Assembly: GCA_019973575.1 (NCBI GenBank)
Contig: BPUI01000001.1
Span: 310,001-374,000 of the forward strand
Direction: 5' to 3'
DNA: 64,000 nt
Source: Gemmatimonadetes bacterium T265
GTDB lineage: Bacteria; Gemmatimonadota; Gemmatimonadetes; Gemmatimonadales; Gemmatimonadaceae
Below, piece after piece: positions 1 through 64,000 of the stretch (position 1 is its first letter; each line of letters begins with the position of its first letter). Position numbers and translations under genes: made by a program. A model generated the notes under the pieces. That model saw only the letters and a list, made by a program, of their open reading frames with translations. It ran no database searches and was not told where the DNA came from.

Positions 1-2343
1 CACCTGGTCGAGCCCCTCGCGCACGTCCTCGATGTGCGTGATGACGATGACCTGCTCGAAGCGGTCGTGCAGCCGGCGGAGCAGCTCGATCACGTTCGCG
101 CGGCGCGACTCGTCGAGCGACCCGAACACCTCGTCGAGCACGAGCAGCGAGAAGCTCTGCCCCGCCCGCTCGGCGATCATCTGCGAGATCGCGAGCCGCA
201 GCACGAGGTTCGCGAGGTCCTCCTCGCCGCCCGAGATCACCGGCTTCGGCACCTTTTCCTCGAGCACGACGACGTTGTACTGCTCGTCGATGTCCAGCGC
301 GTCGTACCGCCCGTCGGTGAGCTCTTCGAGGAAGCGGCTCGCGGCGTCGGAGAGCTCGGGACGGAGCTGCATGTTGAGGTCGGTCCGGAGGTCCGTGTAC
401 GCGCGGTCCAACTCTTCGTGCAGCACGCGCTCCTGCGTGAGCGCCTCCAGCCGCTCGCGCCCGCGCTCCAGCTCGGCGCGCTGCCGCTCCGCCCCCTCCA
501 GCGCCGCGCGCGCCGCGGCGAGTTCGCCGCCGGTCTGCGCGGCGCGCAGCTCCGCCACGCGCGCGGCCGCGACGGCCTCGTCGTGCTCACTCCGCCCCTC
601 GGCGAACCGCGCCTCGTCGAACGGCGTCGCGGCGGCCCTCGCCCGCAGCGCGTCGACGCGCGCGCGGACGCGCGCGAGCGCGTCCGTCGCGTGGTCGAGC
701 GCGGCGCGCGCGACGGCGGCGCGCGCGACGGTCGCTTCCGCCCGCACCCGCTCGCGGTCGAGCTGCGTCAGCCGCTCGGCCTCGGCCTTCATCGCGCGGT
801 GCGCGGCGTGGTCGTAGCCGGCCGGCAGCGCGGCGAGGTCGCCCCGCACGCCGGACAGCCGCCGCTCGCGCGCGGCCACGTCCTGCTCGACGACCCGCAG
901 CTCCTGCACGCCGGCCTGGCACTTGGCGAACCGCCGCTCCAGCGCGGTGACCTCGGCCGCGAGCGCGCGCCGCCGCTCGCCTAACGTCTTGAGCGCGTCG
1001 GGCTCCGCCTCGAGCTGCTTCGCGCGGTCGCGGAAGTACTTCCCGTTCGCCCGCAGCGTGTCGAGCTGGTCCTCGAGCCCGTCGAGCACCTTGCCGAAGT
1101 TGTCGCCGAGCGGCCGGGTGCAGGTCGGACACGGGCTCTCCGGGCCGAGCTGCTCGACGCGCTCGCGCTGCGCCTTCACGTCGTCGAACTGCGCGCGCAG
1201 CGCCTCGAGCTTCGTGTCGACCTCCTGCCGGTCGCGCACGTACGCGGTGCGCTGCGCCTCGTGCTCGCCCTGGGCGGCGTCGAACTCCGCGCGGCGCGCG
1301 GCGAGCTGCGCCTCGGTCTCGCGCTCCAGCGCGGGGGCCGCCGCGAGCTTCGCGCGGCGCTCCGCCAGCCGCGCCGCCTCGTCGACGAGCGCGCGCTCCG
1401 ACTCGAGCAGCGCCTGCCGCCGCCCCTCGGCGGCCGCGAGCTGGTCGAGGCGCGCGAGCTCCGTGCGCAGGATCGGCAGCGGCGCGAGCAGCGACGACAG
1501 ACGCTCGACCTCCGCGCCCGCGGCGGTCGCCGCGTCGAGCTCGCGCGCGAGGCGCTCGCCTTCGCGCGCGAGCGTCGCCCCCTCCGCCTCGGCCACCCGC
1601 AGCTCGCCGGCGAGGGCCAGCGCGCGCTCGCGCGCCTCCTGCACGGCCTGCCAGCGCGGGACGACCCCCGCGAGGCGTTCCTGCGCCGTCACGCGCGCCT
1701 GTTCGGCGCGCTCCGCCTCCGCGCGCGCCGCGGCGACCCGCGCCTCGCCGTCGCGCAGTGCGGCCCTCACCGCGTCGGGGTCCGGGAGCCCGGCGCGCAG
1801 CCCCTGCAGCTCGGCGACGACGAGCTTCCGCCGCTCGCGCACGAGCGTCTGCGCGGCGCGCAGCCGCTCGTAGCCCAACACCCGCGAGAGGAACTGCGCG
1901 CGTTCGGTCGGCCCCATCGCCGCCATCACGCTCAGCTCCTTCTGCCCCGTAAAGTACGTGTTGAAGAACTCGCCCTTCGTCATCCCGAGCCGGCGCTGCA
2001 GCAGCTCGGTCACGCCGGTGATCGAGTTGGCGACGGGCGCGGGGCCGTTGTCGAGGTAGAGCTCCGCGCTCGTCAGCCCGCGCACGACGCGGTAGCGGTG
2101 CCCGGCGAGGTCGAACTCCAGCTCCACGCGCACCGAGGCGCGCGCCGGCGCGCGGCTGTAGCGGAGCGAGTCGCGCGTGCCGCGCGCGGCCTGCTGGCCG
2201 TAGAGCGCCCACGCGATCGCCTCGAGCACGGTCGTCTTCCCGGACCCGTTGGGCCCGATGATCCCCGTCAGCCCGTCGCCGAAGGTGAGCGACGAGTCCG
2301 CGTGCTGGCGGAAGTTGACGAGGCGGAGCGCGCGGAGCTTCAC
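1..2343 (-). CDS. sbcC: SbcC (Rad50-type) ATPase subunit of the SbcCD nuclease, 3' end cut by window edge
   Basis: This is the ATPase and DNA-tethering subunit of the SbcCD complex, which opens hairpins and processes double-strand ends. In 781 visible codons I see a Walker A motif GPNGSGKTT near residue 30, a long charged Arg/Ala/Glu-rich coiled-coil region, a CPTC zinc hook near residue 400 in the middle of the coils, the ABC signature SGGEEDLA near 703 and Walker B LLVLDEVFGSLDE near 735. The frame is still open at base 1 (last residues EDVREGLDQV), so only the C-terminal few residues are missing. The GTG start at 2343 overlaps the sbcD stop by four bases (GTGA), so the pair is translationally coupled. 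It is shorter than the roughly 1000 residues of E. coli SbcC. Confidence 0.93.
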   Translation of the reverse strand, partial: MKLRALRLVNFRQHADSSLTFGDGLTGIIGPNGSGKTTVLEAIAWALYGQQAARGTRDSLRYSRAPARASVRVELEFDLAGHRYRVVRGLTSAELYLDNGPAPVANSITGVTELLQRRLGMTKGEFFNTYFTGQKELSVMAAMGPTERAQFLSRVLGYERLRAAQTLVRERRKLVVAELQGLRAGLPDPDAVRAALRDGEARVAAARAEAERAEQARVTAQERLAGVVPRWQAVQEARERALALAGELRVAEAEGATLAREGERLARELDAATAAGAEVERLSSLLAPLPILRTELARLDQLAAAEGRRQALLESERALVDEAARLAERRAKLAAAPALERETEAQLAARRAEFDAAQGEHEAQRTAYVRDRQEVDTKLEALRAQFDDVKAQRERVEQLGPESPCPTCTRPLGDNFGKVLDGLEDQLDTLRANGKYFRDRAKQLEAEPDALKTLGERRRALAAEVTALERRFAKCQAGVQELRVVEQDVAARERRLSGVRGDLAALPAGYDHAAHRAMKAEAERLTQLDRERVRAEATVARAAVARAALDHATDALARVRARVDALRARAAATPFDEARFAEGRSEHDEAVAAARVAELRAAQTGGELAAARAALEGAERQRAELERGRERLEALTQERVLHEELDRAYTDLRTDLNMQLRPELSDAASRFLEELTDGRYDALDIDEQYNVVVLEEKVPKPVISGGEEDLANLVLRLAISQMIAERAGQSFSLLVLDEVFGSLDESRRANVIELLRRLHDRFEQVIVITHIEDVREGLDQV

Positions 2344-3551
2344 GCGCCGTCCTCCCCGGCCGCCGCCATCGCCCCCGCCGGGACCTCCGCGGCCGCCGCG
2401 TCGGCCTCGGCGAGGTACTTGAGGCCTAACGCGATGAACGCGTCGCGCGGGACCTCGCCCGGCAGCAGCCGCGAGGCGAGCTTCTCGCGCACGACGTCGG
2501 CGAGCGAGGGGCGCCGCCCGGGCGCGCCGCCGGCCGACACGCGCGCGACCTCGGGGCGCACGGTCTCGAACTGGAAGTGCAGCGCGCGGCGCTTGTACTC
2601 GCGGAGCGCCTTGTGGTCCATCTCGCGCGCGACGTGGCGCGGCACGTCGACCGCACGCAGCCGCACGATCTTGTCTTCGATCCCGCCCGGCACGCCGTCC
2701 ACCGCCGCGCGCACCGCCGCGTCCAGCTCGCGCGCGCCGAGTCCCGCGCCCTCCACCGACGGCAGGTCGACGAGCGCGCGCGACGGCTCGAACGGGTGGA
2801 AGGTGTGGCGCCCCGTCGCGAGGTCGCGCTCGACGAGCCCCTTGCCCGGGATCCCGAGCGCGCGCTCGTCGCGCCGCTCGCCCCAGGCGTCGAAGCTCGT
2901 GTAGTCGATCGATCCGGAGTAGAACGCGTTGGGCGCGATCTCGCGGTAGACGTGATAGTGGCCGAGCGCGACGTAATCCCACTCGGGCGCGCGGAGGTCC
3001 TCGGGCGGGATCTCGACGCCGGCGCGCTCGGCCGACGCCGCGCCGGCGGGGAGCACGCCCGCGACCTCGCCGTGCAGGAGGAGCACGTTGTAGCGGACGG
3101 CCGGGTCGGGGGCGAGCACGGGGCGCACGTGCCCCGGCACGTCGGGCACGGCGAGCACGCTCGCGTCGAGCGCGGGGAGCGCGATCCGCTCGGCCGCCCC
3201 GTCGACGACGCGCACGCCGCATTCGTGGAAGAGCTTCAGGATCGACCCGGTCTCCGCCGTGCGCGGCGCGTCGTGGTTGCCGGCGACCATCACGACCGCC
3301 GTGTTCGGCAGCGCGACTTGCAGCCGCATGAACTGGCGGAACGCGTGCAGGATGGCCGGGTTGGGGGGCCGGACGACGTGGAACACGTCGCCCGCGATGA
3401 CGACCAGGTCGGGGCGGAGGTCGATCGTCCGGTCGACCGCGCGCGCGAAGGTGCGCGCGACGTCCGCCTCCCGCTGGTTGACCCCGGCGGGGGTGAGCCG
3501 CTGGTACTGGCGGAAGCCGAGGTGGAGGTCGGCGAGGTGGACGAGGCGCAC
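2340..3551 (-). CDS. sbcD: SbcD (Mre11-type) nuclease subunit
   Basis: This is the metal-dependent phosphoesterase partner of SbcC, acting on DNA ends and hairpins. All calcineurin-like motifs are present: HLADLHLG at residues 5-12, GDVFH, GNHD near 100 and GHYHVYREI near 210, followed by a capping domain. The protein has 403 residues, normal for the family. I chose the GTG at 3551 because the first metal-binding motif begins five residues later. The frame is open further upstream to 3725, but that part is low-complexity Arg/Pro sequence without homology. The stop overlaps the sbcC start. Confidence 0.93.
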   Translation of the reverse strand: MRLVHLADLHLGFRQYQRLTPAGVNQREADVARTFARAVDRTIDLRPDLVVIAGDVFHVVRPPNPAILHAFRQFMRLQVALPNTAVVMVAGNHDAPRTAETGSILKLFHECGVRVVDGAAERIALPALDASVLAVPDVPGHVRPVLAPDPAVRYNVLLLHGEVAGVLPAGAASAERAGVEIPPEDLRAPEWDYVALGHYHVYREIAPNAFYSGSIDYTSFDAWGERRDERALGIPGKGLVERDLATGRHTFHPFEPSRALVDLPSVEGAGLGARELDAAVRAAVDGVPGGIEDKIVRLRAVDVPRHVAREMDHKALREYKRRALHFQFETVRPEVARVSAGGAPGRRPSLADVVREKLASRLLPGEVPRDAFIALGLKYLAEADAAAAEVPAGAMAAAGEDGA

Positions 3552-3630
3552 GGGCGGGAGAGCGGCGGTGGGACGAAAGATACGGCGTTTCCCCGGCCCG
3601 CGGCGCGTCCCGGGCGCGCGGCCGGCGATG

Positions 3631-4197
3631 TTAGGCGTCGCCGCCGGCGCCGGGACGCGCCGCCGCCCGGGCGAGCGCGGCGACGGCGCCCCGCACGAGG
3701 GCCGCGAGTTCCGGGTCGGCCGCAACCCCGGCGCCGTCGAGCGGGCGCCCGAGCAGCGGCACCGTCGCCGACGCGTCGGACACGAGGCGCGCGTTCATCG
3801 TCGTGAGCACCTCGGCGAGTTGGGCGGGGACGTGCACCGACCAGGGCGACGTGTTGAGCAGCGCGACCGGCTTGCCCGGGAACTCCACACTCCCGACGAG
3901 CCAGTCGAGCGCGTTCTTGAGCGCGCCCGGGATGCCGTGCGCGTACTCGGGGCTGGAGATGAGCACCGCGTCGGCGCGGCCCACGCTCGCCCGCAGATCG
4001 GCGGCCTCGGGCGGGAGCGCGTCACCCCCGGGGTCGTCGAGGTCGGGGTCGAACGCCGGGAGCGCGCGGAGCCCCGCGTAACGCACCACCGCCACCCCGT
4101 CCGGCGCGAGGAGCCGCGCGGCGTCGAGGACGGCGTTGTTCGACCCGCCCGCCCGGAGCGAACCCGAGACGGCGAGGACACGGACGGGGCCGGGCAC
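3631..4197 (-). CDS. NADPH-dependent FMN reductase family protein
   Basis: A 188-residue flavodoxin-like oxidoreductase of the NADPH:FMN/azoreductase family. The N-terminal beta-loop VLAVSGSLRAGGSNN binds the FMN phosphate, and SPEYAHGIPGALKNALDW (about residues 80-97) is the family hallmark that contacts the isoalloxazine ring. It probably reduces flavins, quinones or chromate in the cytoplasm; the physiological substrate cannot be read from sequence. The GTG at 4197 is the only reasonable start close to the first strand. The stop is written as GCC-TAA-C and so sits inside a copy of the recurrent GCCTAAC motif. It lies downstream of the M48 protease gene on the same strand. Confidence 0.85.
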   Translation of the reverse strand: MPGPVRVLAVSGSLRAGGSNNAVLDAARLLAPDGVAVVRYAGLRALPAFDPDLDDPGGDALPPEAADLRASVGRADAVLISSPEYAHGIPGALKNALDWLVGSVEFPGKPVALLNTSPWSVHVPAQLAEVLTTMNARLVSDASATVPLLGRPLDGAGVAADPELAALVRGAVAALARAAARPGAGGDA

Positions 4198-4211
4198 GGA
4201 ACCGGACGTGC

Positions 4212-5408
4212 CTAACGCGCCGCCACCGGCGCGCCGGCGGGGTGCGCGGCCTTCCAGTCCATCGCGCGGCGGACGCGGCGGCCGACGCTGGGGTGGTCGT
4301 AGAAGACGAACTCCTCGACCGGACCCGGCGTCGCGGCGCGATAGGCGATCGTCTTCACGAGCGCCTTGGACAGCCCGTCCGGCTCGTTCGCGTGCTCCAG
4401 CGAGAACCGGTCGGCGTCCGACTCGGCGGTGCGGCTGATCGTGTTCGTGAGTGGCGTGGCGAGCAGGCCGAGTGTCGTGAGGATGATCATCACGACCGGC
4501 AGCCCCGCCGGGTCGGCGATCCCGGCGACGTCCCGCGCCCCGGTCCAGCGCTGCACGACCGGGAACAGCCGGTCGATGAGCCAGAACGCGACGACCGCGA
4601 GGACGCTGAAGGCCGCGGCCGTCCAGAGCGCGTGCGCGTGCGCGTAGTGCCCCATCTCGTGCCCGACCACGCCGCGCACCTCGGCCAGGTCGGCGCCCTG
4701 CCGGAACATCACGTCGCTCATCGCGACGCGCGCGGAGCCGAACAGGCCCGACACGTTCGCGGTGTACCGATTGGACTGCTTGGAACCGTCGTACACGAAG
4801 ATCTTGTCCGACGGCACACCGCTGACCTTGGCGAGCGCGACGACCTCGTCGCGCACGGGCCCCGGCGGGGCGGGCGTGTAGCGGTTGAAGATCGGCTCGA
4901 TGAGCACCGGCGCGATCACGAGCATGAGGACCATGAATGCGGCGGTGACCGCCCCGGCCCACGCCCACCACCGGTGCGGCGAGCGCCGCACGACGGCATA
5001 GATCACCGCGAAGAGGATCCCCCCCGCAACGGCCGAAATCACCGTACCGATCGTCTGCTCGCCCAACCACCCGCCGAACGGCTGGCTCGTGAGACCGTAC
5101 CCGCGCTCACGCCACCAGTCGGCATAGACGGACCACGGCAGTTGCACGACCCAGGCGAGCGCCGAGAACACGACGGCGGCGACGAACGCCGCCAGCACGG
5201 GGCGCGGTCGCCGGGCCTGTAGCCGGGCAAGGCCGCTCGAGAGCACGCCGGATTTGAGGATCAGCAGGCTGGCGAGCACCCCGACCACCGAGCCCCAGAG
5301 CAGGAGCCAGTGCCCACCCCGCGTATACGCGACGGCCCTGGCGTGTGCCGCCGGCGGCAACTCCGCCAGGTAGACCGCGGTCGCCGCCGCCGGATCGAAG
5401 CTCTGCAT
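4212..5408 (-). CDS. STE24-like M48 family membrane metalloprotease
   Basis: A 398-residue membrane zinc protease resembling CAAX prenyl protease 1 (Ste24/HtpX superfamily). Hydrophobic segments lie near residues 30-50, 75-95, 125-150 and 150-175, with two more behind the active site. The zinc motif is VVGHEMGHYAH (HExxH), and the third ligand is the Glu in SRTAESDADRF. In bacteria such enzymes act in membrane protein quality control; prenyl processing should not be assumed. I took ATG 5408 (MQSFDPAAATAV) because sequence upstream of it in the same frame looks non-coding. The stop TAG forms part of a GTTAGGC motif. The 5' end faces the divergent phospholipase D gene. Confidence 0.87.
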   Translation of the reverse strand: MQSFDPAAATAVYLAELPPAAHARAVAYTRGGHWLLLWGSVVGVLASLLILKSGVLSSGLARLQARRPRPVLAAFVAAVVFSALAWVVQLPWSVYADWWRERGYGLTSQPFGGWLGEQTIGTVISAVAGGILFAVIYAVVRRSPHRWWAWAGAVTAAFMVLMLVIAPVLIEPIFNRYTPAPPGPVRDEVVALAKVSGVPSDKIFVYDGSKQSNRYTANVSGLFGSARVAMSDVMFRQGADLAEVRGVVGHEMGHYAHAHALWTAAAFSVLAVVAFWLIDRLFPVVQRWTGARDVAGIADPAGLPVVMIILTTLGLLATPLTNTISRTAESDADRFSLEHANEPDGLSKALVKTIAYRAATPGPVEEFVFYDHPSVGRRVRRAMDWKAAHPAGAPVAAR

Positions 5409-6726: not shown

Positions 6727-6741
6727 GTGGCGGCGTGCGAT

Positions 6742-8484
6742 TCAGGGGGCGGCCTGACGGGCGGCCACGGCCTGCATGTCGGCGGCCACGCCCGCGCGCT
6801 GGAGCGCCGCGCGCGTGAGACTCACCGCGAGCTCCCGCTCGCCGACGAGCGCCTGCGACGCGCCGTGGGCCTCGAGGTACGCGCGCTCGTCGTCCCCGTG
6901 CGTGCGGACGATCACCTCGGCCGCCGCGTTGAGCCGCCGGGCGAGGGCGAGGATCGCGCGCGCCTGGTACGCGTCGGGCGTGGCAACGACCACGAGCCGC
7001 GCCCGCTCCAGGTGCGCGTCGGCCAGCACCTCGGGGCGCGTCGCGTCGCCATAGATCACCGGGAGCCCGCTCGCGCGGAGCGACTCGGCGCGCTCCCGGC
7101 TCTGCTCGACGATGACGTGCGGCACGCCGTGCCGCGCCAGCTCGTCCGCGACGGGCCCGCCGACGCGGCCGTGGCCGACGAGCACGACGTGCCCGCGCAG
7201 GTGCTCCCGGTCCACCCCCGGCGGGAGCGCCGCGACCGCGCCGGCCGGCCGTTCGAGCGTTTCCGTTAGGCCACGGCGCCGGCCGGCCGCGCGCCCGAGC
7301 GCCTCCGCCGCGGTGAAGACGAACGGGTTGAGGGTGATCGAGAGCAGCGCCGCCGCGACGATCAGCGACTGCGCCTCGGGCGGCAGCAGCCCGAGCGACA
7401 GGCCGAGCGCGGCGAGGATGAAGGAGAACTCGCCGATCTGCGCGAGACTCGCCGAGATCGTCAGCGCCGTGTGCAACGGGTAGCGGAAACCGAGCACGAG
7501 GGCGAACGACGCGAGCGACTTGCCGAGCAGGATGATCGCGAGCACGGCGAGCACGTGGAGCGGCTCGCGCACGAGGATCGCCGGGTCGAAGAGCATCCCG
7601 ACCGAGACGAAAAAGAGCACCGCGAACGCGTCCTGCAGCGGGAGTGCGCTCGCCGCCGCCTCGTGGCTGAAGTCCGATTCGCTCACGACGACGCCGGCGA
7701 AGAAGGCGCCGAGCGCGAACGAGACGTCGAACAGCCCGGCCGCGCCGACGGCGATGCCGAGCGCGATCGCGAGCGTGGCGAGCGTGAACAGCTCGCGCGA
7801 CCCGGTGCCGACGACGCGTCCGAGCAGCCACGGAATCGCGCGCCGCCCGACGACGAGCATGACCGCGACGAACGCCGCGACCTTGACGAGCGTGAGCCCG
7901 AGCGTGAGGAGCAGCGCCGCGCTGCCGGCGCCGGCGGCCCCCGCGGGCGCGCGACCGCCTAACGGCCCCGCGAGCGCGGGCAGCAGCACGAGCGCGAGCA
8001 CCGTGACGAGGTCCTCGACGATGAGCCACCCCACGGCGATCCGCCCGTCCGCGGAGTCCGTGATCCCGCGGTCCTCGAGCGCGCGGAGCAGCACGACCGT
8101 ACTCGCGACCGAGAGCGCGAGGCCGAAAACGAGTCCGGTGCCCCACGACCAGCCCCAGAGGTGCGCGACGAGCGCGCCGAGCCCGGTCGCGACGGCGATC
8201 TGGGCGAGCGCGCCGGGGACGGCGATCCGGCGCACCGCGAGCAGGTCGGCGATCGAGAAGTGCAGCCCGACGCCGAACATTAGCAGGATCACGCCGAGCT
8301 CGGCGAGCTGCGAGGCGAGGCCCGCGTCGGCGACGTAGCCCGGCGTGAACGGGCCCACGGCGACCCCGGCCAGCAGGTAGCCCAGGATCGGCGGCAGCCG
8401 GAGCCGCGTGGCGAGCAGGCCGAAGACGAAGGCGAGCCCGAGTCCGGCGGCGATCGTGGCGAGGAGCGCGGTCTCGTGCGGCAT
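6742..8484 (-). CDS. CPA2-type cation:proton antiporter with TrkA-N domain (YbaL/KefB-like)
   Basis: A 580-residue inner-membrane monovalent cation:H+ antiporter. Residues 1-390 form the Na+/H+ exchanger domain with about 12 hydrophobic segments, including the paired helices LPPILGYLLAGVAVGP and FALGAFFAGVVVSESDFSH. Residues about 415-545 form a cytoplasmic Rossmann RCK/TrkA-N domain with GHGRVG as nucleotide-binding loop. It probably exports K+ under nucleotide control. E. coli YbaL has the same architecture and length. ATG 8484. It converges on the phospholipase D gene with 15 bases between stops, and no clear terminator hairpin is visible there. Confidence 0.9.
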   Translation of the reverse strand: MPHETALLATIAAGLGLAFVFGLLATRLRLPPILGYLLAGVAVGPFTPGYVADAGLASQLAELGVILLMFGVGLHFSIADLLAVRRIAVPGALAQIAVATGLGALVAHLWGWSWGTGLVFGLALSVASTVVLLRALEDRGITDSADGRIAVGWLIVEDLVTVLALVLLPALAGPLGGRAPAGAAGAGSAALLLTLGLTLVKVAAFVAVMLVVGRRAIPWLLGRVVGTGSRELFTLATLAIALGIAVGAAGLFDVSFALGAFFAGVVVSESDFSHEAAASALPLQDAFAVLFFVSVGMLFDPAILVREPLHVLAVLAIILLGKSLASFALVLGFRYPLHTALTISASLAQIGEFSFILAALGLSLGLLPPEAQSLIVAAALLSITLNPFVFTAAEALGRAAGRRRGLTETLERPAGAVAALPPGVDREHLRGHVVLVGHGRVGGPVADELARHGVPHVIVEQSRERAESLRASGLPVIYGDATRPEVLADAHLERARLVVVATPDAYQARAILALARRLNAAAEVIVRTHGDDERAYLEAHGASQALVGERELAVSLTRAALQRAGVAADMQAVAARQAAP

Positions 8485-16895: not shown

Positions 16896-16900
16896 GAGCG

Positions 16901-26260: not shown

Positions 26261-27979
<1,719 letters not shown>

Positions 27980-27984
<5 letters not shown>

Positions 27985-34504: not shown

Positions 34505-34611
34505 GGGTTGTCTGGGTTGGTGCGGGTCGAGCGACGCGCGGGTTCCTCGCGGCGCCGGCGGTTCCGGCGCGCACCCGGCGGGTGCCTAACGGGTCGGCCT
34601 AGGGAGTTGCC

Positions 34612-39053: not shown

Positions 39054-41609
<2,556 letters not shown>

Positions 41610-49881: not shown

Positions 49882-50601
49882 ATGAGTGCGCCGCGCAAGC
49901 CGCTCGTGATCGGGATTGCCGGCGGGTCGGGGTCGGGCAAGTCGACCGTGGCGCGCAGGGTGGCCGAGACGCTGCGGCGCGCGTCCGTCGCCTTCGTCGA
50001 CATGGACGCGTACTACAAGAACTTCGCGCACCTGCCGCCGGCCGAGCGGCGGCGCGTCAACTGGGACCACCCTGACGCCTTCGACTTCGACCTCTTCGTC
50101 GGCCACCTGCTGCGCCTCGCGCGCGGCGAGCCGGTCGAGAAGCCGGTCTACAACTTCGTCGAACACGTGCGCGCGCCGCGCACCGTCGCGGTCGCCCCGG
50201 CCGACGTGGTCGTCGTCGACGGGATCCTGCTCTTCGTGGACGCGCGCGTGCGCGAGCTGTGCGACGTGAAGGTGTACGTGGACGCCGACGCCGACGTGCG
50301 CCTCATCCGGCGCCTGCGCCGCGACATGGGGCAGCGCGGGCGCCCGTTCGAGGAGATCCTCGACCAGTACCTGACGACCGTGCGCCCGATGCACCAGCAG
50401 TTCGTCGAGCCGACGAAGCGCTACGCCGACGTGATCGTGCCGCGGGGCGGGCACAACGCGGTCGCGACCGAGATGATCGTCGCGAAGATCCAGCGCCGCC
50501 TCGACGGGCGCGCGGACGCGACGCCGGACGCCTCGCGGGACGTCGCGCGCGAGGTCCCGCTCGGCGTCGCCGTCCCGGCGGACCTCCCCGCCTCCGCCTA
50601 A
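49882..50601 (+). CDS. udk: Uridine kinase
   Basis: It phosphorylates uridine and cytidine to UMP/CMP. It has 239 residues. GIAGGSGSGKSTVARRVAETL is the P-loop, VAFVDMDAYYKNF and NWDHPDAFDFDL are nucleoside-binding, and KPVYNFVEHVRAP and DGILLFVDARVREL are diagnostic. ATG 49882 is chosen over one two codons upstream. The stop is written GCC-TAA-C. phoB begins 11 bases later, so the genes probably share a transcript. Confidence 0.93.
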   Translation: MSAPRKPLVIGIAGGSGSGKSTVARRVAETLRRASVAFVDMDAYYKNFAHLPPAERRRVNWDHPDAFDFDLFVGHLLRLARGEPVEKPVYNFVEHVRAPRTVAVAPADVVVVDGILLFVDARVRELCDVKVYVDADADVRLIRRLRRDMGQRGRPFEEILDQYLTTVRPMHQQFVEPTKRYADVIVPRGGHNAVATEMIVAKIQRRLDGRADATPDASRDVAREVPLGVAVPADLPASA

Positions 50602-50611
50602 CGCGGCCCCC

Positions 50612-53291: not shown

Positions 53292-54896
53292 ATGACCGCC
53301 GACCCCAGCGCCCCCCCGCCCGCCGCCACCCGGATCGCCGCCGTCGATATCGGCTCCAACTCGATCCGGAGCATCGTCGCCGACGTCTCGCCCGACGGGG
53401 CGATCCGCGTCGTCGACGAGATGAAGGCGATGCCCCGCCTCGGGCTCGGCGTCGACCGGACGGGTCTGTTAGGCGAGGGGCCGATGCTGGCCGCGCTCGA
53501 CGCGCTGCAGCGCATGGCCGCCCTCGCCGCGCAGTTCAAGGCCGAGCGCGTCGAGGCGGTCGCGACGAGCGCCGTGCGCGACGCGGCGAACGGCGGCGCG
53601 TTCCTCGAGCGGGTGCGCGAGGCGACGGGGCTGCGCGTGCGCCTGCTGACCGGCGACGAGGAGGCGCGCCTCTCCTTCCGGTCGGCCAGGGCGCACTTCG
53701 AACTCGGCGCCGGGCGCACCGTGGTCGCCGACATCGGCGGCGGCTCGCTCGAGCTCGCGCTCGCGGCCGAGGGATTGCTGGACCGGCTCGTCTCGCTGCC
53801 CTTCGGCGCGATCCGCGCGACCGAGCAGTTCCTCGCCGACGTCGACCCGAAGCACCCGGCGCGCGGGCGCGAGGCGCTGCGCGAGCTGCGGCGCGCGGTG
53901 CGCTGGGCCATCCGCGACGAGCTGTCGGTCAAGGACTGGCGCGGGGCGCGGGTGATCGGTTCGGGCGGGACGTACACGAACCTCGCGGCCGTGCTCAACG
54001 CGCGGGCCGGCGTGCAGGGCGCCGGCATGAAGTCGCGCCACGGCACGGTCGTCCCGCGCGCGGAGGCCGAGCACGTGCTCGACCAGCTCGCCGCGCTCGG
54101 CCCCGCGGAGCGCCGCGCCGTGCCGGGCCTCAACCCGGAGCGCGCCGACATCATCGTCGCGGGGCTCGCGGTCGCGGCCGAGGTGCTCGCGGTGTTCGAG
54201 GCGCGGGAGCTGCTGGTGTCGGGCTACGGGATCCGCGAGGGGCTGCTGCTCGAGGCCGCGGCCGTCGCGCCTAACGCACCGGCCGACCCCGCCGCGGCGC
54301 GCGAGCGCTCGGTGCGCGCGTTCGCGGAGCGGTGTCACTACGAGCAGCCGCACGCGGACCAGGTGCGCCGGCTCGCGCTCCGCCTCTACGACCAGCTCGC
54401 GGCGCGCTTGGGCTGCGAGCCCGGCGACCGCGAGGTGCTGGCCGACGCGGCGTTGCTGCACGACGTCGGCTACCAGATCAACTACGAGAAGCACCACAAG
54501 CACTCGTACCACCTCGTGCGCCACGCCGACCTGCAGGGCGTCTCGCCGACCGAGCAGGTCGCGATCGCGAACGTGGCGCGCTACCACCGCGGCGCGGCGC
54601 CGAAGCGGACGCACGCGAACTTCGGCGCGCTCGACCGCGCGCTGCGGCGGCGCGTGCGGCGGCTGTCGGCGCTGCTGCGCGTCGCGGACGGGCTCGACCG
54701 CGGGCACGCGGGCGCGGTCGGGGACGTCGAGGTAGCGGTGGGCGGCGGGCGGGTGCGGGTGGGGGTGACGCCCGCGTCGTCGGAGGCGCCCCTCCAGCTC
54801 GAACTGTGGGGGGCGGAGCGAAAGGCGGGGCTGCTGGAGCGCCTGCTCGGCAAGCCCGTCGTGTTCGCCGCGCCGGCCGCGGACGCGGACGCCTAA
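53292..54896 (+). CDS. ppx: Exopolyphosphatase/pppGpp phosphohydrolase (Ppx/GppA) with C-terminal HD domain
   Basis: It hydrolyses inorganic polyphosphate and possibly pppGpp. It has 534 residues. The actin-like fold starts with IAAVDIGSNSIRSIVADV, followed by ATSAVRDAANGGAF, DIGGGSLELALA (phosphate loop) and VIGSGGTYTNLA. The C-terminal half has HD-type HDVGYQINYEKHHKHSYHLV and a second segment (LLRVADGLDRGH), as in long Ppx enzymes. It follows phoR by 64 bases. The stop is in a GCC-TAA-C motif. It faces the accessory island. Confidence 0.92.
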   Translation: MTADPSAPPPAATRIAAVDIGSNSIRSIVADVSPDGAIRVVDEMKAMPRLGLGVDRTGLLGEGPMLAALDALQRMAALAAQFKAERVEAVATSAVRDAANGGAFLERVREATGLRVRLLTGDEEARLSFRSARAHFELGAGRTVVADIGGGSLELALAAEGLLDRLVSLPFGAIRATEQFLADVDPKHPARGREALRELRRAVRWAIRDELSVKDWRGARVIGSGGTYTNLAAVLNARAGVQGAGMKSRHGTVVPRAEAEHVLDQLAALGPAERRAVPGLNPERADIIVAGLAVAAEVLAVFEARELLVSGYGIREGLLLEAAAVAPNAPADPAAARERSVRAFAERCHYEQPHADQVRRLALRLYDQLAARLGCEPGDREVLADAALLHDVGYQINYEKHHKHSYHLVRHADLQGVSPTEQVAIANVARYHRGAAPKRTHANFGALDRALRRRVRRLSALLRVADGLDRGHAGAVGDVEVAVGGGRVRVGVTPASSEAPLQLELWGAERKAGLLERLLGKPVVFAAPAADADA

Positions 54897-55238
54897 CGCG
54901 CGGGCGCTGAGAGTGCGCCGGCCGCGGCCGGGTCGTCGGGACAGCTCAGCCGCCCCCGAGCCACGGTTGCCTGCGAGACAGCCGAGGGGTGTCGCGATAC
55001 GTCCCGGCGGACCCGACAGCTGGTATGCTGGGTGGCACGGGCGGGCGCCGCGTCGATAGTGTACAGGACGGGTCGGGGCTTCGCTGCTGACAGCCGAGGG
55101 CCTCCCCTCTTGTTGAAGCGTGCGATCCCGGCTCCCCTGTGCTTTTGGCTCGAGACGGCCGCGACACCGTCCGTTGATCTGGCGACCAGCAGGCGCGTGG
55201 AGCCGACGCCCCGCCCCTCACCCCCGGAGGAATCACCC
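54897..55238. other. 342-base stretch between ppx and the IS110 remnant
   Basis: No intact gene is seen. The sequence ACAGCCGAGGG occurs twice (54977-54987 and 55089-55099, same strand) and may mark an old insertion boundary. The right part is probably the 5' leader and left end of the IS110 element. Confidence 0.5.
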
Positions 55239-55925
55239 ATGCTGTACCCGGGGATCGACATCGGCAAGCGCTGGCACGAAGCGGCGCTCCTGGACGGCGC
55301 GGGCGCAACGGTCTGGCGGCACCGGTTCGCCGGGTCGCGTGCCGGCTTCGACGCACTCGCGCAGCAGCTGACGAGCGTCGACGTCGGCGCGCTTACCGTC
55401 GCGCTCGAGGCGACGGGCGTGTACTGGCTCGCGCTGCACGCCTGGCTGACGGAGCGCGGCGTCGCCCGCATTGTGGTGCTCAATCCGCTGCAAACGAAGG
55501 CGTTCCGCAACGCGACCCTGCGAGGCAGCAAGACCGATCGGATCGATGCGGTGGCGATCGCGCAGCTCGTCCGCTGGATGGGAGCCGCCGCCGCCGGGCA
55601 CGTGCGCCCCGACGAGCGCCAGGCCGCGGCGCGCGACGTCAGCCGCCTGCGGACCGAGATGATCGAGCTCCGCGCGCGGCAGCTCGTCAAGCTCGGCGGC
55701 GTCCTCGACCGGCTCTTCCCCGAGTTCCGCCCGGCCTTCGGCAAGCTCGGGAGCAGCAGCGCGCTCGCGGTGCTCACCCGGTGGACGACGCCGGCGGCGT
55801 TAGGCGCGGCCGCCGAGGGCGAGGTCACCTCCGTCCTCGCGCAGGCCAGCCGCGGCATGCTCGGCGCGGCCAAGGCGGCCGAGCTCCAGGCGCTCGCGGC
55901 CACGTCGGCCGGCCTCCCCGACCCG
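55239..55925 (+). mobile_element. Remnant of an IS110-family transposase gene (3' half missing)
   Basis: ATG 55239 with GGAGG at 55226-55230 starts an IS110-type DEDD transposase: LYPGIDIGKRWHEAALLDG (first Asp), ALEATGVYWLALHAWL (Glu), SKTDRIDAVAIAQLV (Asp, Asp) and the following helical segment to about AATSAGLPDP. The normal C-terminal transposase domain (Transposase_20, with its conserved Ser) is absent. The frame runs on into unrelated sequence that is antisense to a DUF5615-like remnant. The right junction is near 55900-55960. The gene is therefore dead. It carries a TTA-GGC motif at 55799. Confidence 0.8.
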
Positions 55926-55934
55926 CTCGACGTC

Positions 55935-56309: not shown

Positions 56310-56589
56310 CGGGCCTCCGGGCGGGGACGCGCCCAATCTAGGCCGGCGCCCGCCCGGCCGCGCGCCCGCCCTGGGCCGGCGCTGGCCCCGGCGCGCCGAC
56401 CCAGCCCCAGCCGAGCGACCCCGCGCGATCGCCGCCTAACGCCTATCGGATCGCCTGCTAGCCCGTCCCGAGCGACCCCGCAAGCAGCCCCCCCGGTCCG
56501 CAGCGTCCCGACGCCCAAGCGCCGCGCGCGACGCGATTTACCACGTAATCTCGCCCGCCCCCACCCCTGCGCCAGCCCGCCACGCCGCG

Positions 56590-57708: not shown

Positions 57709-57745
57709 GCGCCTAACGTACGGCGGCACCCCGACGCCGCCGCAC

Positions 57746-57838: not shown

Positions 57839-60058
57839 TCAGCCGCCCGCCGGCTGCCCCGCAGCCGACGACGCCGGGAGCGGGGCGGCGGGCGGCGCCT
57901 CCGCGGCCTCGTGCGCCTGCCCCCACGGGTCGCGCAACAGGATCGCGTGCGTCGCCCGCTCCGCCTCGCCGGGCGCGGGGTGCCGCTGCACCCACGACCC
58001 GTCCGGCCGCAGCTCCCACGCCTGCCGGTTGTCGGCGAGGCACGTGTCGAGCAACGCCCGCAGCGGCTCGTGCAGCCCCGGGTCCTGCACCGGCGTGATC
58101 ACCTCCACGCGCCGGTCGAAGTTGCGCGGCATCCAGTCGGCGGAGCCGAGGTAGTACTCGGGGCGCCCGTCGTTCTGGAAGAACCAGACGCGCGAGTGCT
58201 CGAGAAAACGCCCGATGATCGAGAGCACCCGGATCCGGTCGCTCACCCCCGGCACGCCCGGCCGGATGCAGCACGTCCCGCGCACGATGAGGTCGACGTC
58301 GACCCCGGCCTGCGAGGCGCGGTAGAGCGCGTCGATCGTCTCCGGGTCGACGAGCGCGTTCATCTTCGCGATGATGCGCGCCGGGCGCCCCGCCCGCGCG
58401 TGCGCCGCCTCGCGCTCCAGCATCGCGATCACGCGCGGGCGCAAGTTCGCGGGCGCGACGAGGAGCTTCCGGTACAGCCGCTGCCGCGAGTACCCGGTGA
58501 GCGTGTTGAACAGGTCCGACACGTCCGCCCCGATCGACGGGGTCGCGGTGAACAGCCCGAGGTCGGTGTAGAGGCGCGCCGTCTTCGTGTTGTAATTCCC
58601 CGTGCCGATGTGCACGTACCGGCGGATCGCGCCGTCCGGGTCGCGGCGGATCACGAGCGCCGTCTTGCAGTGCGTCTTGAGCCCCGGCACGCCGTACGCC
58701 ACGTGCACGCCGTCGCGCTCCAGCGTGCGCGCCCAGTTGATGTTGTTCGCCTCGTCGAACCGCGCCTGCAACTCGACGAGCACGGCGACCTGCTTCCCCG
58801 CCTCCGCCGCCTCGGCGAGCGCCTCGACGATCGCCGTGTCGCCAGACGTCCGGTACAACGTGCACTTAATGGCGAGCACGTTCGGGTCGGCCGCCGCGTC
58901 CTCCAGGAACCGCTCCACCGTCGCGTCGAACGAGTGGAAGGGGTGGTGCACGAGGAGGTCGCGCTCGCGAATGACGTCGAAGAACGTGCGCGGCGGCCCG
59001 GCCGCGATGCCCGGCGCGGCCGGCGCCGCGCGACGCCCGATCTCGCGCAACGCGCCCGGCACGAGCGGCTGGAACGGCGCGTCCTTCAGCCCGGGCAGGT
59101 CGAGACCGGCCAGCGCCATCAGGTCGCCTAACTCCAGCAGCCGCCCGCTCTCGTCGACGTCGGCGTCGGTGAGCGCGCTCACGTTCTGCGTCTCGACGTC
59201 GTTGAGCTCCTCGAGGATGAGCGTGCGCAACGCGGCCGGCATCCCCGCCTGCACCTCCACCCGCACGACCTCGCCGAAGCGCCGCCGGGCGACCTGCCGC
59301 TCGACGATGTCGAGCAAGTCCTCCACCTGGTCGATCTGACCGAGGTCGAGGTCGCTGTAACGCGTGATCCGGAACGCGAACCAGCGCAACACCTCCATCC
59401 CCGGAAAGAGCGCCGTCAGGTTCGCGCCGATCACCTCCTCGAGCGGTACGAAGCGGTACGGTCGTTCCACGTCCCCCGTCGGCACCCAGCGCGGCAGCGA
59501 GCGCGGCACCTTCACGCGCGCGAACCGCTCCGCCCCCGTATCCGGGTCCCGCAGCTCGACCGCGAGCGACAGCGACAGGTTCGAGATGTACGGAAAGCGG
59601 TGCCCCGGGTCGAGCGCGAGCGGCGTGAGCACCGGGAACGCCTGCGCCTCGAAGAACTCGTCGACGCGCATCCACTCGTTCGGCGTCAGGTCCGCCATCC
59701 GCACGAGCTCCACCCCGTGCTCGGCCAGCGCGGGCAGCAGCGCCTCGTTCAGACACCGCTCCCGCGCGGCGAGCAGCGTGCGCACCCGCGCCCGAATCGC
59801 CGCCAACTGCTCGGCCGGCGTGAGGCCGTCGGGCCGGTACTGCTGCGCGCCCACCGCGACCTTGCGGCGGACCCCGGCCACCCGGACCATGTAGAACTCG
59901 TCCAGGTTGGTGCTGAAGATCGCGAGGAACTTGACGCGCTCGAGCAGCGGCACCCGCGCGTCCTCGGCCTCGTGCAGGACGCGGGCGTTGAACTCGAGCC
60001 AGCTGAGCTCGCGGTTGATGAAGAGGGCCGTGGGCGGCAGCCGCGGTGGGGCGGTCAT
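57839..60058 (-). CDS. ppk1: Polyphosphate kinase 1
   Basis: It makes polyphosphate from ATP. It has 739 residues. [50 protein letters not shown] is the N-terminal hallmark. [19 protein letters not shown] and the PLD-like C-terminal halves follow, with the phosphorylated His483 in [22 protein letters not shown], the second conserved His-rich region [10 protein letters not shown] and [14 protein letters not shown]. An Ala/Pro-rich ~25-residue tail ends the protein. Start ATG 60058. Together with ppx it sets polyphosphate levels. Confidence 0.95.
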
Positions 60059-60148: not shown

Positions 60149-61204
60149 TCAGCCGTTCGCGGCCGGCACGAGCGCGCGCAGCACGAGGTAGCTGAGCCCG
60201 GCCATGAGCCCCGCGGCGGGGATCGTCAGGACCCACGCCCAGACGATCCGCCCCGCAATCCCCCAGCGCACCGCGCTCAGCCGGTTGGTCGCGCCGACGC
60301 CGACGATCGACCCGGTGATCGTGTGCGTCGTGCTGACGGGGATCCCAAAGTGTGAGGCGAGCAGGATCACGAGCCCGCCGCCCGTCTCGGCGCAAAAGCC
60401 GCCCACGGGCCGCAGCCGCGTGATCCGCGAACCCATCGTGTGCACGATGCGCCAGCCGCCGAACAGGGTACCCAGCGCGATCATCGAGATCGCCGCGACC
60501 TCGACCCAGAGCGGCGGGACGACGTCGGCGCGCGTGAGGTACAGGTGACGCAGCACCCCCGTCTCGCCCGCGAACGCCGCCTGCGCCTGACGCGAGGCGA
60601 GCAGCCCGACGATCACCCCCATCGTCTTCTGCGCGTCGTTGCCGCCGTGCGCGAGCGAGAGGAGCCCCGACGAGAGCAGCTGCCCGCGCCGGAACACGCG
60701 GTCCACCTTCCGCGGCGTCGCGCGGCGGAAGAGGTTGAGGACCAACACCATGAGCGCGAAGCCCATGAAGGCGCCGAGCATCGGCGAGAGGGCGATCGCG
60801 GAGAGCGTCTCGACCCACTTGCGGCCGAAGGTGATCCCGGACGCGCCGGCCTTGGCGAGCGCGGCGCCGGCGAGGCCGCCGATGAGCGCGTGCGAGGAGC
60901 TCGACGGGATCCCGTAGTACCAGGTGACCAGGTTCCAGACGATCGCGCCTAACAGGGCGGCGAAGATCAGGTTCGGGTCGACGATGTCGCCGCGCACGAA
61001 GCCGGTCGCGACGGCCTTCGCGACCGCCGCCCCGCCGACGAACAGCGCGGCGAAGTTGAACAGCGCGGCCCACAGCACGGCCCGGAACGGCGTGAGCACG
61101 CGCGTCCCGACGATCGTGGCGATCGAGTTCGCCGAGTCGTGGAAGCCGTTGATGAAGTCGAACGCGAACGCGATCAGGACGATCGCCAGGATGTACGTGA
61201 CCAC
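60149..61204 (-). CDS. pit: PiT-family inorganic phosphate transporter
   Basis: A low-affinity phosphate:H+ (metal phosphate) symporter of the inner membrane. It has 351 residues with about 10 hydrophobic segments. Both PiT signatures are clear: FDFINGFHDSANSIATIV near the start and SLAHGGNDAQKTMGVI near the middle. Two internal repeats (SSSHALIGG and VSTTHTITGSIVGVG) are typical. GTG 61204 is taken as start because the first helix begins immediately. It lies 71 bases after its DUF47 partner, the usual order. Confidence 0.93.
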   Translation of the reverse strand: MVTYILAIVLIAFAFDFINGFHDSANSIATIVGTRVLTPFRAVLWAALFNFAALFVGGAAVAKAVATGFVRGDIVDPNLIFAALLGAIVWNLVTWYYGIPSSSSHALIGGLAGAALAKAGASGITFGRKWVETLSAIALSPMLGAFMGFALMVLVLNLFRRATPRKVDRVFRRGQLLSSGLLSLAHGGNDAQKTMGVIVGLLASRQAQAAFAGETGVLRHLYLTRADVVPPLWVEVAAISMIALGTLFGGWRIVHTMGSRITRLRPVGGFCAETGGGLVILLASHFGIPVSTTHTITGSIVGVGATNRLSAVRWGIAGRIVWAWVLTIPAAGLMAGLSYLVLRALVPAANG

Positions 61205-62990: not shown

Positions 62991-64000
62991 ATGGCAGACA
63001 AGGTCATCGGCATCGACCTCGGCACGACCAACTCGGTCGTTGCGGTCCTCGAGGGAGGCGACCCGGTCGTCATCCCGAACGCCGAGGGAGGCCGTACGAC
63101 GCCGTCGGTCGTCGCCTTCACCAAGGACGGCGAGCGCCTGGTCGGGCAGATCGCCAAGCGTCAGGCCGTCACCAACCCGCAGAACACGATCTTCTCCATC
63201 AAGCGCTTCATGGGGCGCAAGGTGGGCGAAGTGCAGGAAGAGGCGAAGCGCGTCCCCTACAAGATCGTCCCGGGGACCAACGACCTCGCCGCCGTCGAGA
63301 TCCAGGGCAAGCGCTACACGCCGCCCGAGATCTCCGCGATGATTCTCCAGAAGATGAAGCAGACCGCGGAAGACTACCTCGGCCACTCGGTGTCCAAGGC
63401 GGTCGTGACCGTGCCGGCCTACTTCAACGACTCGCAGCGCCAGGCCACCAAGGACGCGGGCAAGATCGCGGGCCTCGACGTGCTCCGCATCGTCAACGAG
63501 CCCACGGCGGCCGCGCTCGCCTACGGCCTCGACAAGAAGAAGGAAGAGACGATCGCCGTCTTCGACCTCGGCGGCGGCACGTACGACATCTCGGTGCTCG
63601 AGCTCTCCGAGGGCGTCTTCGAGGTCAAGTCGACCAACGGTGATACGCACCTGGGCGGCGACGACTTCGACCAGCGCGTCATCGACTGGCTCGTGGCGGA
63701 GTTCAAGCGCGACCAGGGCATCGACCTCTCGAAGGACCCGATGGCGCTCCAGCGCCTGAAGGAGGCCGGCGAGAAGGCCAAGATGGAGCTGTCGAGCACG
63801 CAGTCGACCGACATCAACCTGCCGTTCATCACGGCGGACGCGTCGGGCCCGAAGCACCTCAACTACCAGCTCTCGCGCGCCAAGTTCGAGCAGCTCGTCG
63901 ACGACCTCGTGCAGCGCACGATCCCGCCGATGGAGCAGGCGCTCAAGGACGCGGGCCTCGGCCCCGACAAGATCGACGAGGTCATCCTCGTCGGGGGCTC
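62991..64000 (+). CDS. dnaK: Chaperone DnaK (Hsp70), C-terminal part beyond window
   Basis: [43 protein letters not shown] begins a standard bacterial Hsp70. [29 protein letters not shown] and the last residues VILVGGS are ATPase-domain motifs. About 336 codons are visible and the gene is open at the end. ATG 62991. I saw no CIRCE element in the 229-base upstream gap. Heat-shock regulation is likely by family knowledge only. Confidence 0.98.

What the first reader, a model, noticed from the sequence alone, without database searches (positions are those of the whole stretch)
1..64000. GTTAGGC/GCCTAAC occurs about 50 times and imposes the rare TTA codon
Read by eye, the hexamer GTTAGG/CCTAAC appears roughly 50 times, nearly always as the heptamer GTTAGGC/GCCTAAC (for example at 980, 7968, 19743, 24226, 35255, 40088, 51946, 52747, 53468, 60948). 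A rough hand estimate at about 73% GC gives about five for the heptamer. In genes it is mostly TTA-GGC (Leu-Gly) on the coding strand, in a genome where TTA should be almost unused. It also uses every other phase: Pro-Asn (26237, 28994, 54270), Leu-Thr (7265, 46490), stop codons (stops of the FMN reductase, higA, udk and ppx are GCC-TAA-C) and intergenic sites. Selection therefore acts on the DNA word, not the protein. Possible roles: DNA-uptake word, chromosome-organising or methylation site, or recombinase core site.
Basis: partly seen in the sequence, partly recalled or inferred. Interest (0 to 1): 0.75.

Follow-up and report, generated by a model that had tools for sequence, protein, structure and literature searches.

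The report
A seven-letter DNA word, genome-wide
In some soil bacteria of the phylum Gemmatimonadota the DNA word GTTAGGC is written thousands of times across the genome, overriding normal codon choice, most likely because a DNA-handling system of the cell recognises it as 'self' DNA.

Summary
The window has 49 GTTAGGC (2-4 expected); the genome has 3304 (backward control 253). Synonymous-codon shuffles give 6 where 154 are seen. In the G000 sample the word takes 115 of 148 TTA codons and 20 of 48 TAA stops, so the pressure is on DNA. The host is a Gemmatimonadaceae bacterium; its nearest named relative found, Roseisolibacter, is word-poor. In 13 of 109 family genomes examined the word is hugely abundant (785-5785 copies); sister lineages differ, and 17 genomes titled as other phyla show no such abundance. 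Small lineage 'dialects' exist (GTTRGGC; CGTTAGGY). Close neighbours are too few; no strand polarity was found in the chromosome tested. Chi is unlikely: 7 of 13 word-rich genomes show neither RecC nor AddB/AdnA-type domains. m6A methylation is unlikely: the published methylome of word-rich Gemmatirosa kalamazoonensis lists three other motifs. An integron link is tempting, since GTTAGGC is also a common attC core in this phylum, but integrase presence does not track the word. Best reading: a self-DNA recognition word working like the uptake sequences of Neisseriaceae and Pasteurellaceae. No receptor was found and uptake was not tested.

The parts
979..985 (-). word; TAA stop of the ORF ending at 984
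2424..2430 (-). word; TTA-GGC in phosphoesterase gene
3630..3636 (+). word; antisense in phosphoesterase gene
4210..4216 (-). word; TAG stop of M48 peptidase ORF 4212-5753 (minus)
   Evidence: frame read from the coordinates
7265..7271 (+). word; antisense in Na/H exchanger gene
7957..7963 (-). word; TTA-GGC in Na/H exchanger gene
10883..10889 (-). word; outside genes called by my caller
11360..11366 (-). word; outside genes called by my caller
11923..11929 (-). word; TTA-GGC in carbohydrate phosphorylase gene
12739..12745 (-). word; TTA-GGC in carbohydrate phosphorylase gene
15018..15024 (-). word; TTA-GGC in alpha-amylase family gene
15090..15096 (-). word; TTA-GGC in alpha-amylase family gene
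16900..16906 (+). word; TAA stop of higA (16901-17365, minus)
18330..18336 (-). word; TTA-GGC in malQ-type gene
18549..18555 (-). word; TTA-GGC in malQ-type gene
19044..19050 (-). word; TTA-GGC in malQ-type gene
19743..19749 (-). word; TTA-GGC in malQ-type gene
20437..20443 (-). word; inside glgB-like ORF 19864-22785 that my caller missed
21949..21955 (-). word; inside glgB-like ORF 19864-22785 that my caller missed
22812..22818 (-). word; TTA-GGC in CBM48/amylase gene
24225..24231 (-). word; TTA-GGC in CBM48/amylase gene
25556..25562 (-). word; sense, other frame (GTT-AGG, Val-Arg)
26237..26243 (+). word; outside genes called by my caller
27772..27778 (-). word; TTA-GGC in amylase gene
28994..29000 (+). 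word; antisense in glgE-type gene
29390..29396 (-). word; TTA-GGC in glgE-type gene
31245..31251 (-). word; outside genes called by my caller
31608..31614 (-). word; outside called genes; most of the 10 relatives printed read CTG/CTC-GGN here
33261..33267 (-). word; TTA-GGC in ORF 32616-33338
34584..34590 (-). word; outside called genes, beside ffh
35254..35260 (-). word; TTA-GGC in ffh; word-rich L209 has it too, Roseisolibacter (L184) has CTC-GGC
35713..35719 (-). word; TTA-GGC in ffh; of 10 relatives printed 9 read CTN-GGC and 1 is gapped
40088..40094 (+). word; TTA-GGC in lon
40871..40877 (+). word; TTA-GGC in lon
42282..42288 (-). word; TTA-GGC in DUF445 gene
43002..43008 (-). word; TTA-GGC in DUF445 gene; shared with word-rich L198
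47812..47818 (-). word; in phosphorylase-superfamily ORF 47662-50670; none of 7 aligned relatives has Leu here (5 Ile-Gly, 1 Met-Gly, 1 Arg-Gly)
48169..48175 (-). word; same ORF; 7 of 7 aligned relatives CTC/CTG-GGN
50596..50602 (-). word; TAA stop of udk
51946..51952 (+). word; TTA-GGC in histidine kinase gene
52747..52753 (+). word; TTA-GGC in histidine kinase gene
53468..53474 (+). word; TTA-GGC in ppx
54269..54275 (-). word; antisense in ppx
54891..54897 (-). word; TAA stop of ppx
55799..55805 (+). word; overlaps the 3' end of ORF 55800-56054 (minus)
56434..56440 (-). word; outside genes called by my caller
57711..57717 (-). word; sense, other frame, near the 5' end of the intI ORF 56590-57729
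59126..59132 (-). word; TTA-GGC in ppk1
60947..60953 (-). word; TTA-GGC in phosphate transporter gene

Best explanation
GTTAGGC, preferably preceded by C or T and mostly followed by a purine, is a genome-wide self-DNA recognition word kept at about 0.17-1.35 copies per kb in certain Gemmatimonadaceae. SHOWN: the enrichment, its independence of codons, its near-equal use of both strands, its patchy distribution (found here in one phylum only), its dialects, and the shortage of close neighbours. INFERRED: a DNA-binding receptor, most likely at the type IV pilus / ComEC uptake step, prefers DNA with the word. DNA that carries the word is taken up and recombined more often, so the word spreads to places where it costs little: Leu-Gly pairs, stop codons and gaps. 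When a lineage loses the receptor, the word decays to CTC/CTG-GGC. That makes it work like the uptake words of Neisseriaceae and Pasteurellaceae. I do not claim that it is a member of those systems.
For: 785-5785 copies in 13 word-rich family genomes. Codon shuffle 154 vs 6.1 in G000, 232 vs 9.4 in G016, 69 vs 2.6 in G021. Near-equal strands and no replication polarity in the 22 chromosomal stretches of G016 tested, as said of uptake words (PMC1939737, passages). One orientation favoured in reading frame (sense TTA-GGC 115 of 154 complete words in genes of G000), as said of uptake words (PMC2346458, abstract). Neighbours under 200 bp are rarer than random placement: 6.5% vs 12.8 (sd 1.9) in G000, 8.6 vs 13.7 (1.8) in G016, 14.9 vs 24.6 (3.9) in G021. 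Dialects, as in Neisseriaceae (PMC3630211, abstract): GTTGGGC raised in G021 (113 vs 24), G016 (82 vs 34), weakly in G000 (76 vs 45) and G020 (48 vs 33); GTTAGGT raised in G020 (23 vs 3.2), G173 (21 vs 3.3), weakly in G131 (10 vs 4.3). ComEC in 12 of 13 word-rich family genomes; a PilQ-like secretin in 33 of 33 genomes tried, none over the curated cut-off. Related lineages differ in state.
Against: No uptake experiment, and no evidence that any of these bacteria is competent. ComEC and the PilQ-like secretin are as common in word-poor relatives, so they do not explain the pattern; word-rich G267 showed no ComEC. A partial pilin comparison (30 loci of 5 genomes) found no word-rich-specific pilin. 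Terminator-like inverted pairs, said to be frequent in uptake-word genomes (PMC12616744, passages), are absent from the window. The core is 7-8 bp, shorter than the ca. 9-12 nt given there. No gene-end bias, unlike Pasteurellaceae (PMC2346458). The overall variation of spacing does not differ clearly from random (CV 0.90 vs 0.99, sd 0.055; 0.985 vs 1.006, sd 0.054; 0.997 vs 1.126, sd 0.121). A 15-kb mobile element in G016 carries 14 words, denser than the sampled chromosome. That the word equals the attC core is not explained by uptake.
Confidence: 0.42

Rival explanations
1. Integron-linked word: GTTAGGC is the core at which integron integrase (IntI) recombines attC sites, and the genome sites are IntI targets, decoys or products.
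For: Of 31 attC-like sites that my home-made rule found on the + strand of four arrays in word-poor genomes, 20 read GCCTAAC...GTTAGGC (L070 1 of 1, L071 2 of 11, L072 4 of 6, L073 13 of 13), mostly with C or T before the core, as in the genomic word. 12 of 13 word-rich family genomes have an IntI over the cut-off (G028 partial), one inside this window at 56680-57612. In the IntI tree word-rich and word-poor labels are somewhat clustered (8 changes, shuffled mean 12.0, as low in 9 of 500), though related genomes and near-copies would do that too.
Against: 16 of 22 word-poor family genomes also pass the IntI cut-off, and 0 of 6 moderately enriched f2 genomes do. No single word-rich IntI clade; the window IntI pairs with that of word-poor G015. 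No paired attC form in the window. G016's own attC cores include GTTAGAC and GTTAGGT, yet its sampled chromosome is not enriched in those (2 vs 1.6 and 2 vs 1.4).
Confidence: 0.12
2. Chi-type word: it switches a helicase-nuclease from destruction to recombination, marking DNA as self.
For: Genome-wide, short, non-palindromic, strict core, shortage of close neighbours.
Against: RecC (PF04257) is in 2 of 13 word-rich family genomes and PF12705 (AddB/AdnA-type nuclease domain) in 6 of 13; G000, G020, G021, G029, G033, G173 and G267 show neither. A diverged machine could be missed. No leading-strand polarity in G016: arc 13.7 (permutation p 0.07) against 28.9 or more under a 75:25 bias.
Confidence: 0.14
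3. HIP1-like word made by biased repair or mutation rather than by selection for recognition.
For: HIP1 in cyanobacteria is a comparable high-copy, lineage-patchy word tied to methyltransferases (PMC4390886, abstract). Words are about as frequent outside called genes as expected by length (84 vs 75 in G000, 70 vs 64 in G016; the gene caller misses genes).
Against: HIPs are palindromic; this is not. The methylome of Gemmatirosa kalamazoonensis reports only RGATCY, ATGCAC and CCAGN7TCA as m6A motifs (PMC3974934). Mutation bias does not predict a shortage of neighbours under 200 bp. It would have to write A and T into a 74% GC genome, and at window 47812 a residue differs from all 7 aligned relatives.
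Confidence: 0.17
4. Another cellular role (replication, nucleoid or partition marker) with an unknown binding protein.
For: Even coverage: index of dispersion per 20-kb stretch 0.60 (G173), 0.65 (G020), 1.18 (G016).
Against: No polarity where tested. Close relatives live without the word.
Confidence: 0.15

Closest known systems
DNA uptake sequence (DUS) of Neisseriaceae and uptake signal sequence (USS) of Pasteurellaceae
   Same: Hundreds to thousands of copies, no polarity where tested, one orientation favoured in reading frame, lineage dialects, ComEC in 12 of 13 word-rich family genomes.
   Different: Phylum Gemmatimonadota; core 7-8 bp; no terminator-like inverted pair in the window; no gene-end bias; uptake and receptor untested. 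PMC12616744 (passages) calls those two families the only ones known to discriminate at the DNA-binding step by such motifs.
Chi sites of RecBCD / AddAB
   Same: Short, non-palindromic, over-represented word.
   Different: Domains of the reading machines not found in 7 of 13 word-rich genomes; no polarity in the one chromosome tested.
HIP1 of cyanobacteria
   Same: Extremely iterated word, patchy among relatives.
   Different: Not palindromic; no matching m6A motif in the one published methylome.
Integron attC core site (GTTRRRY / RYYYAAC, consensus recalled)
   Same: Exact heptamer and mostly the C/T before it.
   Different: Window sites are single, without the inverted partner and hairpin; the word does not track IntI.

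Membership tests
DUS/USS uptake word | hundreds to thousands of copies per genome | tested here: met
   3304 in G000; 785-5785 in the 13 word-rich family genomes
DUS/USS uptake word | preferential uptake or transformation of word-bearing DNA | not testable with these tools
   needs a bench assay
DUS/USS uptake word | type IV pilus and ComEC uptake machinery | tested here: inconclusive
   ComEC in 12 of 13 word-rich family genomes; PilQ-like secretin in 33 of 33 genomes, none over the cut-off; both also in word-poor genomes
DUS/USS uptake word | word-specific minor pilin receptor (known for DUS, ComP; for USS only predicted) | tested here: inconclusive
   no word-rich-specific pilin among 30 loci of 5 genomes; comparison incomplete
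DUS/USS uptake word | motif of about 9-12 nt | tested here: inconclusive
   7 fixed positions plus Y at -1, mostly R at +7, weak Y at +8 in G016; relaxed at -1 in G021
Chi site | RecBCD or AddAB/AdnAB present to read it | tested here: not met
   neither domain in 7 of 13 word-rich family genomes
Chi site | co-orientation with replication | tested here: not met
   G016 chromosome, 22 stretches
KOPS | strong strand skew by replichore | tested here: not met
   no consistent skew in sampled stretches of G000 and G016
HIP | palindromic word | tested here: not met
   the sequence itself
HIP / restriction-modification site | cognate methyltransferase activity | tested here: not met
   m6A motifs of Gemmatirosa kalamazoonensis do not include it (PMC3974934); one species, m6A motifs only
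Integron attC | paired inverted cores with a foldable stem | tested here: not met
   0 attC-like pairs in the window
Integron attC | core fits GTTRRRY (consensus recalled) | tested here: met
   sequence; arrays in L070-L073

The most novel reading that the evidence does not exclude
A third, independently evolved DNA-uptake (self-recognition) word system, outside Proteobacteria, whose word is identical to a common integron attC core, so that integron gene cassettes carry ready-made uptake words and are drawn preferentially into these cells.
Probability: 0.15. Interest if true: 0.92.

Novelty: new variant of a known kind. Interest (0 to 1): 0.7.

Why it matters
Uptake words have been described as confined to two proteobacterial families (PMC12616744, passages). 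A word of this kind in Gemmatimonadota, gained or lost between close relatives, would give a natural experiment on how such words arise and decay, and would imply targeted DNA exchange in a rarely cultured phylum that is common in soil. At least one cultured word-rich strain exists (Gemmatirosa kalamazoonensis), so it can be tested.

Tried and rejected
Degenerate GTTRRRY tolerance: an early count suggested that the variants enriched in G016 were those of GTTRRRY. Leaving out the integron-array locus L059 removed this; of the GTTRRRY one-base variants only GTTGGGC stayed clearly raised. Note 2 was corrected in note 3.

A single word-rich IntI clade: not found, though labels are somewhat clustered. 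RecC, PF12705, ComEC and the PilQ-like secretin as gene correlates: none tracks the word. Word-rich-specific pilin: none found; the pilin first thought shared only by G016 and G000 has a close relative in word-poor G015. Site sharing between word-rich genomes in rpoB looked above chance (p 0.007) but not once a C or T before the word was required (p 0.10). Prophages as a test of young DNA: one portal gene in 13 genomes, so no test. Relatives of the G016 element's primase in viral contigs: none. The first rpoB tree used some loci in the wrong orientation and was replaced, a quick tree. Two of the 30 genomes searched (G028, G003) gave no rpoB and are not in it. The gene caller is home-made and misses real genes (for example 4212-5753 and 19864-22785), so 'intergenic' counts are upper bounds.

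Literature: searches showed no report of GTTAGGC as an over-represented word in Gemmatimonadota. In one search the letters occur in 1,522 papers, of which I saw 20 listings; the library is open-access only. So this is not proof of absence.
Full report
WHAT IS THERE. The heptamer GTTAGGC (GCCTAAC on the other strand) occurs 49 times in the 64-kb window; 49 of the 51 GTTAGG hexamers are the full heptamer. Markov expectation is 1.9-3.9 and the median permutation of the same letters occurs 3 times. The genome (G000, 5.63 Mb, 6 contigs, window at C1:310001-374000) has 3304 copies, 1612 on + and 1692 on -, against 253 for the word read backwards.

IT IS A DNA WORD, NOT A PROTEIN OR CODON EFFECT. In 424 kb sampled from G000 (window included) my simple gene caller found 274 genes with 154 complete words. 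100 synonymous-codon shuffles gave 6.1 (sd 2.5, maximum 13). The same test gave 232 against 9.4 in G016 and 69 against 2.6 in G021. TTA codons lie in the word in 115 of 148 cases (G000), 137 of 153 (G016) and 43 of 55 (G021). Words also supply 20 of 48 TAA and 8 of 64 TAG stops in G000, and 19 of 36 and 12 of 74 in G016. All four frames that avoid an internal stop are used. Most single-base variants are near or below expectation, so the core is strict. The base before it is C or T in 224 of 235 (G000) and 303 of 313 (G016), less strictly in G021 (175 of 234). T directly after it is rare in G000 (4 of 235), G016 (11 of 313) and G021 (10 of 234), not in G020 (33 of 168).

HOW THE SITES AROSE. 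I aligned the window to the 33 loci L184-L216 of the Ffh search; 11 of 49 word sites were covered, giving 162 aligned cells, some gapped. The commonest counterparts are GCTCGGC (28) and GCTGGGC (15), that is CTC/CTG-GGC, the usual Leu-Gly codons; GTTAGGC itself occurs 5 times. At window 47812 none of 7 relatives has Leu (5 Ile-Gly, 1 Met-Gly, 1 Arg-Gly), so there a residue differs too. In an rpoB codon alignment of 28 genomes words sit mainly at Leu-Gly pairs (12 of 15 columns); the densest genome, G021, fills 8 of 12 such places.

WHO HAS IT. The nearest named relative by Ffh is Roseisolibacter sp. H3M3-2 (86% identity), itself word-poor (42 copies in 5.4 Mb). Of 103 family genomes (own included) 12 are word-rich; one search adds six further family genomes, of which G028 is word-rich: 13 of 109, with 785-5785 copies. 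Six genomes of a second family (G054, G131, G154, G184, G143, G172; 380-960 copies) are moderately enriched against their relatives, but 4 of the 6 stay below their own backward control; in G131 the sampled count is 62 against 7.4 expected. They form one clade among the 7 genomes of that family in the rpoB tree, and none has a word in rpoB. The other members of the phylum have 3 to about 200 copies, except G057 (277) and G040 (268), and nearly all lie below the backward control. Of 24 genomes reached through named loci three had about 1000 or more: G307 (L198) and G310 (L209), whose counts equal G011 and G005, and G309 (L208, 1320); all three are titled Gemmatimonadaceae. Eighteen of the 24 are not titled as Gemmatimonadota (17 name another group, one names none); the highest has 222 in 4.6 Mb, and all 18 lie below their backward controls. 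In the quick rpoB tree word-rich genomes are not one clade (at least 3 changes forced by well-supported branches); relatives that differ are G021 with G241 (support 90, labelled the same genus; G241 is 88% complete), G016 and G000 with G015 (100), and G020 with G014 (96). G016 is Gemmatirosa kalamazoonensis KBS708: its C3 stretch is 99.9% identical to NZ_CP007129.1 and its contig lengths fit PMC3974934 (whole text).

SMALL DIALECTS. In larger samples without most integron-array loci, GTTAGGC is the top heptamer by z-score in G000, G016 and G021; in G020, G173 and G131 its shift CGTTAGG is just ahead of it. GTTGGGC is raised in G021 (113 vs 24), G016 (82 vs 34), weakly in G000 (76 vs 45) and G020 (48 vs 33), and not in G173 (33 vs 51). 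GTTAGGT is raised in G020 (23 vs 3.2), G173 (21 vs 3.3) and weakly in G131 (10 vs 4.3). Other variants are raised too (G021 GTTAGGA 13 vs 1.4, GTTAGCC 15 vs 3.5; G020 GTTATGC 24 vs 7.5). This looks like a recogniser whose preference drifts between lineages.

DISTRIBUTION ALONG DNA. Words are too seldom close together: spacing under 200 bp is 6.5% against 12.8 (sd 1.9) for random placement in G000, 8.6 against 13.7 (1.8) in G016, 14.9 against 24.6 (3.9) in G021; the overall coefficient of variation of spacing does not differ clearly from random. Counts per 20-kb stretch are even in G020 (dispersion 0.65), G173 (0.60) and G016 (1.18), less so in G021 (3.16, unequal stretches); the figure printed for G000 is inflated because the 64-kb window was counted as one stretch. 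There is no gene-end bias. In 22 stretches of the G016 chromosome, after allowing for gene strand, the largest arc of strand excess is 13.7 (permutation p 0.07) where a 75:25 bias would give 28.9 or more. Terminator-like inverted pairs are absent from the window, whose only near pair is in direct orientation; L054 has one 47-base inverted pair.

WHAT IT IS NOT, AS FAR AS TESTED. Chi: RecC is found in 7 of 50 genomes, two of them word-rich, and PF12705 in 14 of 33, six of them word-rich family genomes; seven word-rich family genomes show neither, though a diverged machine could be missed. Methylation: PMC3974934 reports three m6A motifs for G. kalamazoonensis (RGATCY, ATGCAC, CCAGN7TCA), none of which matches; m4C and other species remain open. 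KOPS: no consistent skew in the stretches sampled.

THE INTEGRON COINCIDENCE. GTTAGGC/GCCTAAC is also a common core of integron attC sites here: by a home-made rule, 20 of 31 attC-like sites on the + strand of L070-L073 have it on both sides (2 of 11 in L071, 13 of 13 in L073), mostly with C or T before the core. The window holds an integron integrase gene, 56680-57612 on the minus strand, and no attC-like pair. But IntI over the cut-off is present in 12 of 13 word-rich and 16 of 22 word-poor family genomes and in 0 of 6 moderately enriched f2 genomes, and the IntI tree has no single word-rich clade, although the labels are somewhat clustered (8 changes, as low in 9 of 500 shuffles). I cannot say whether the identity is chance (about 1 in 500 for a GTTRRRY match on either strand, my own estimate, before allowing for the other known words I would have noticed) or means something.

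BEST READING. A protein that handles DNA recognises the word. Uptake for natural transformation fits best: density, lack of polarity, favoured reading frame, spacing, dialects, and ComEC in 12 of 13 word-rich family genomes. I found no receptor: the competence genes tested do not separate word-rich from word-poor genomes, and an incomplete pilin comparison gave no candidate. A 15.0-kb mobile element of G016, present as a circle and in the chromosome, with integrase and primase genes, carries 14 words (0.93 per kb against 0.68 in the G016 sample, which includes it), so the word is not confined to long-resident core genes. I put 0.42 on the uptake reading and about 0.9 on the weaker claim that the word is maintained as DNA rather than by protein or codon needs.

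Noticed in passing
window 56590-57729 (minus): Integron integrase (TIGR02249, 382 bits) next to ppk1, with no attC-like pair in the window; it pairs with the IntI of word-poor G015 in the tree.
   Followed up: partly
L024 (G016 C1) and L074: The published 21-kb 'possible phage' of Gemmatirosa kalamazoonensis reads as a 14,997-bp period found also in the chromosome, with integrase and primase but no structural PHROGs hit among the 10 ORFs scanned.
   Followed up: partly
L054, L055 (G000 C3:107001-127000 and 184001-204000): Two very similar integron integrases in one genome, one with an internal TGA in the family search; attC-like sites lie nearby.
   Followed up: no
window 17655-30313: A run of glycogen/starch metabolism genes (malQ-type, glgB-like, amylases, glgE-type) on the minus strand.
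   Followed up: no
L072, L073 (word-poor genomes G035, G158): Dense attC arrays with many very similar 90-bp sites.
   Followed up: no
whole genomes: 19 of the 33 Gemmatimonadota genomes searched for both RecC (PF04257) and PF12705 showed neither, which raises the question of how they process double-strand breaks.
   Followed up: no
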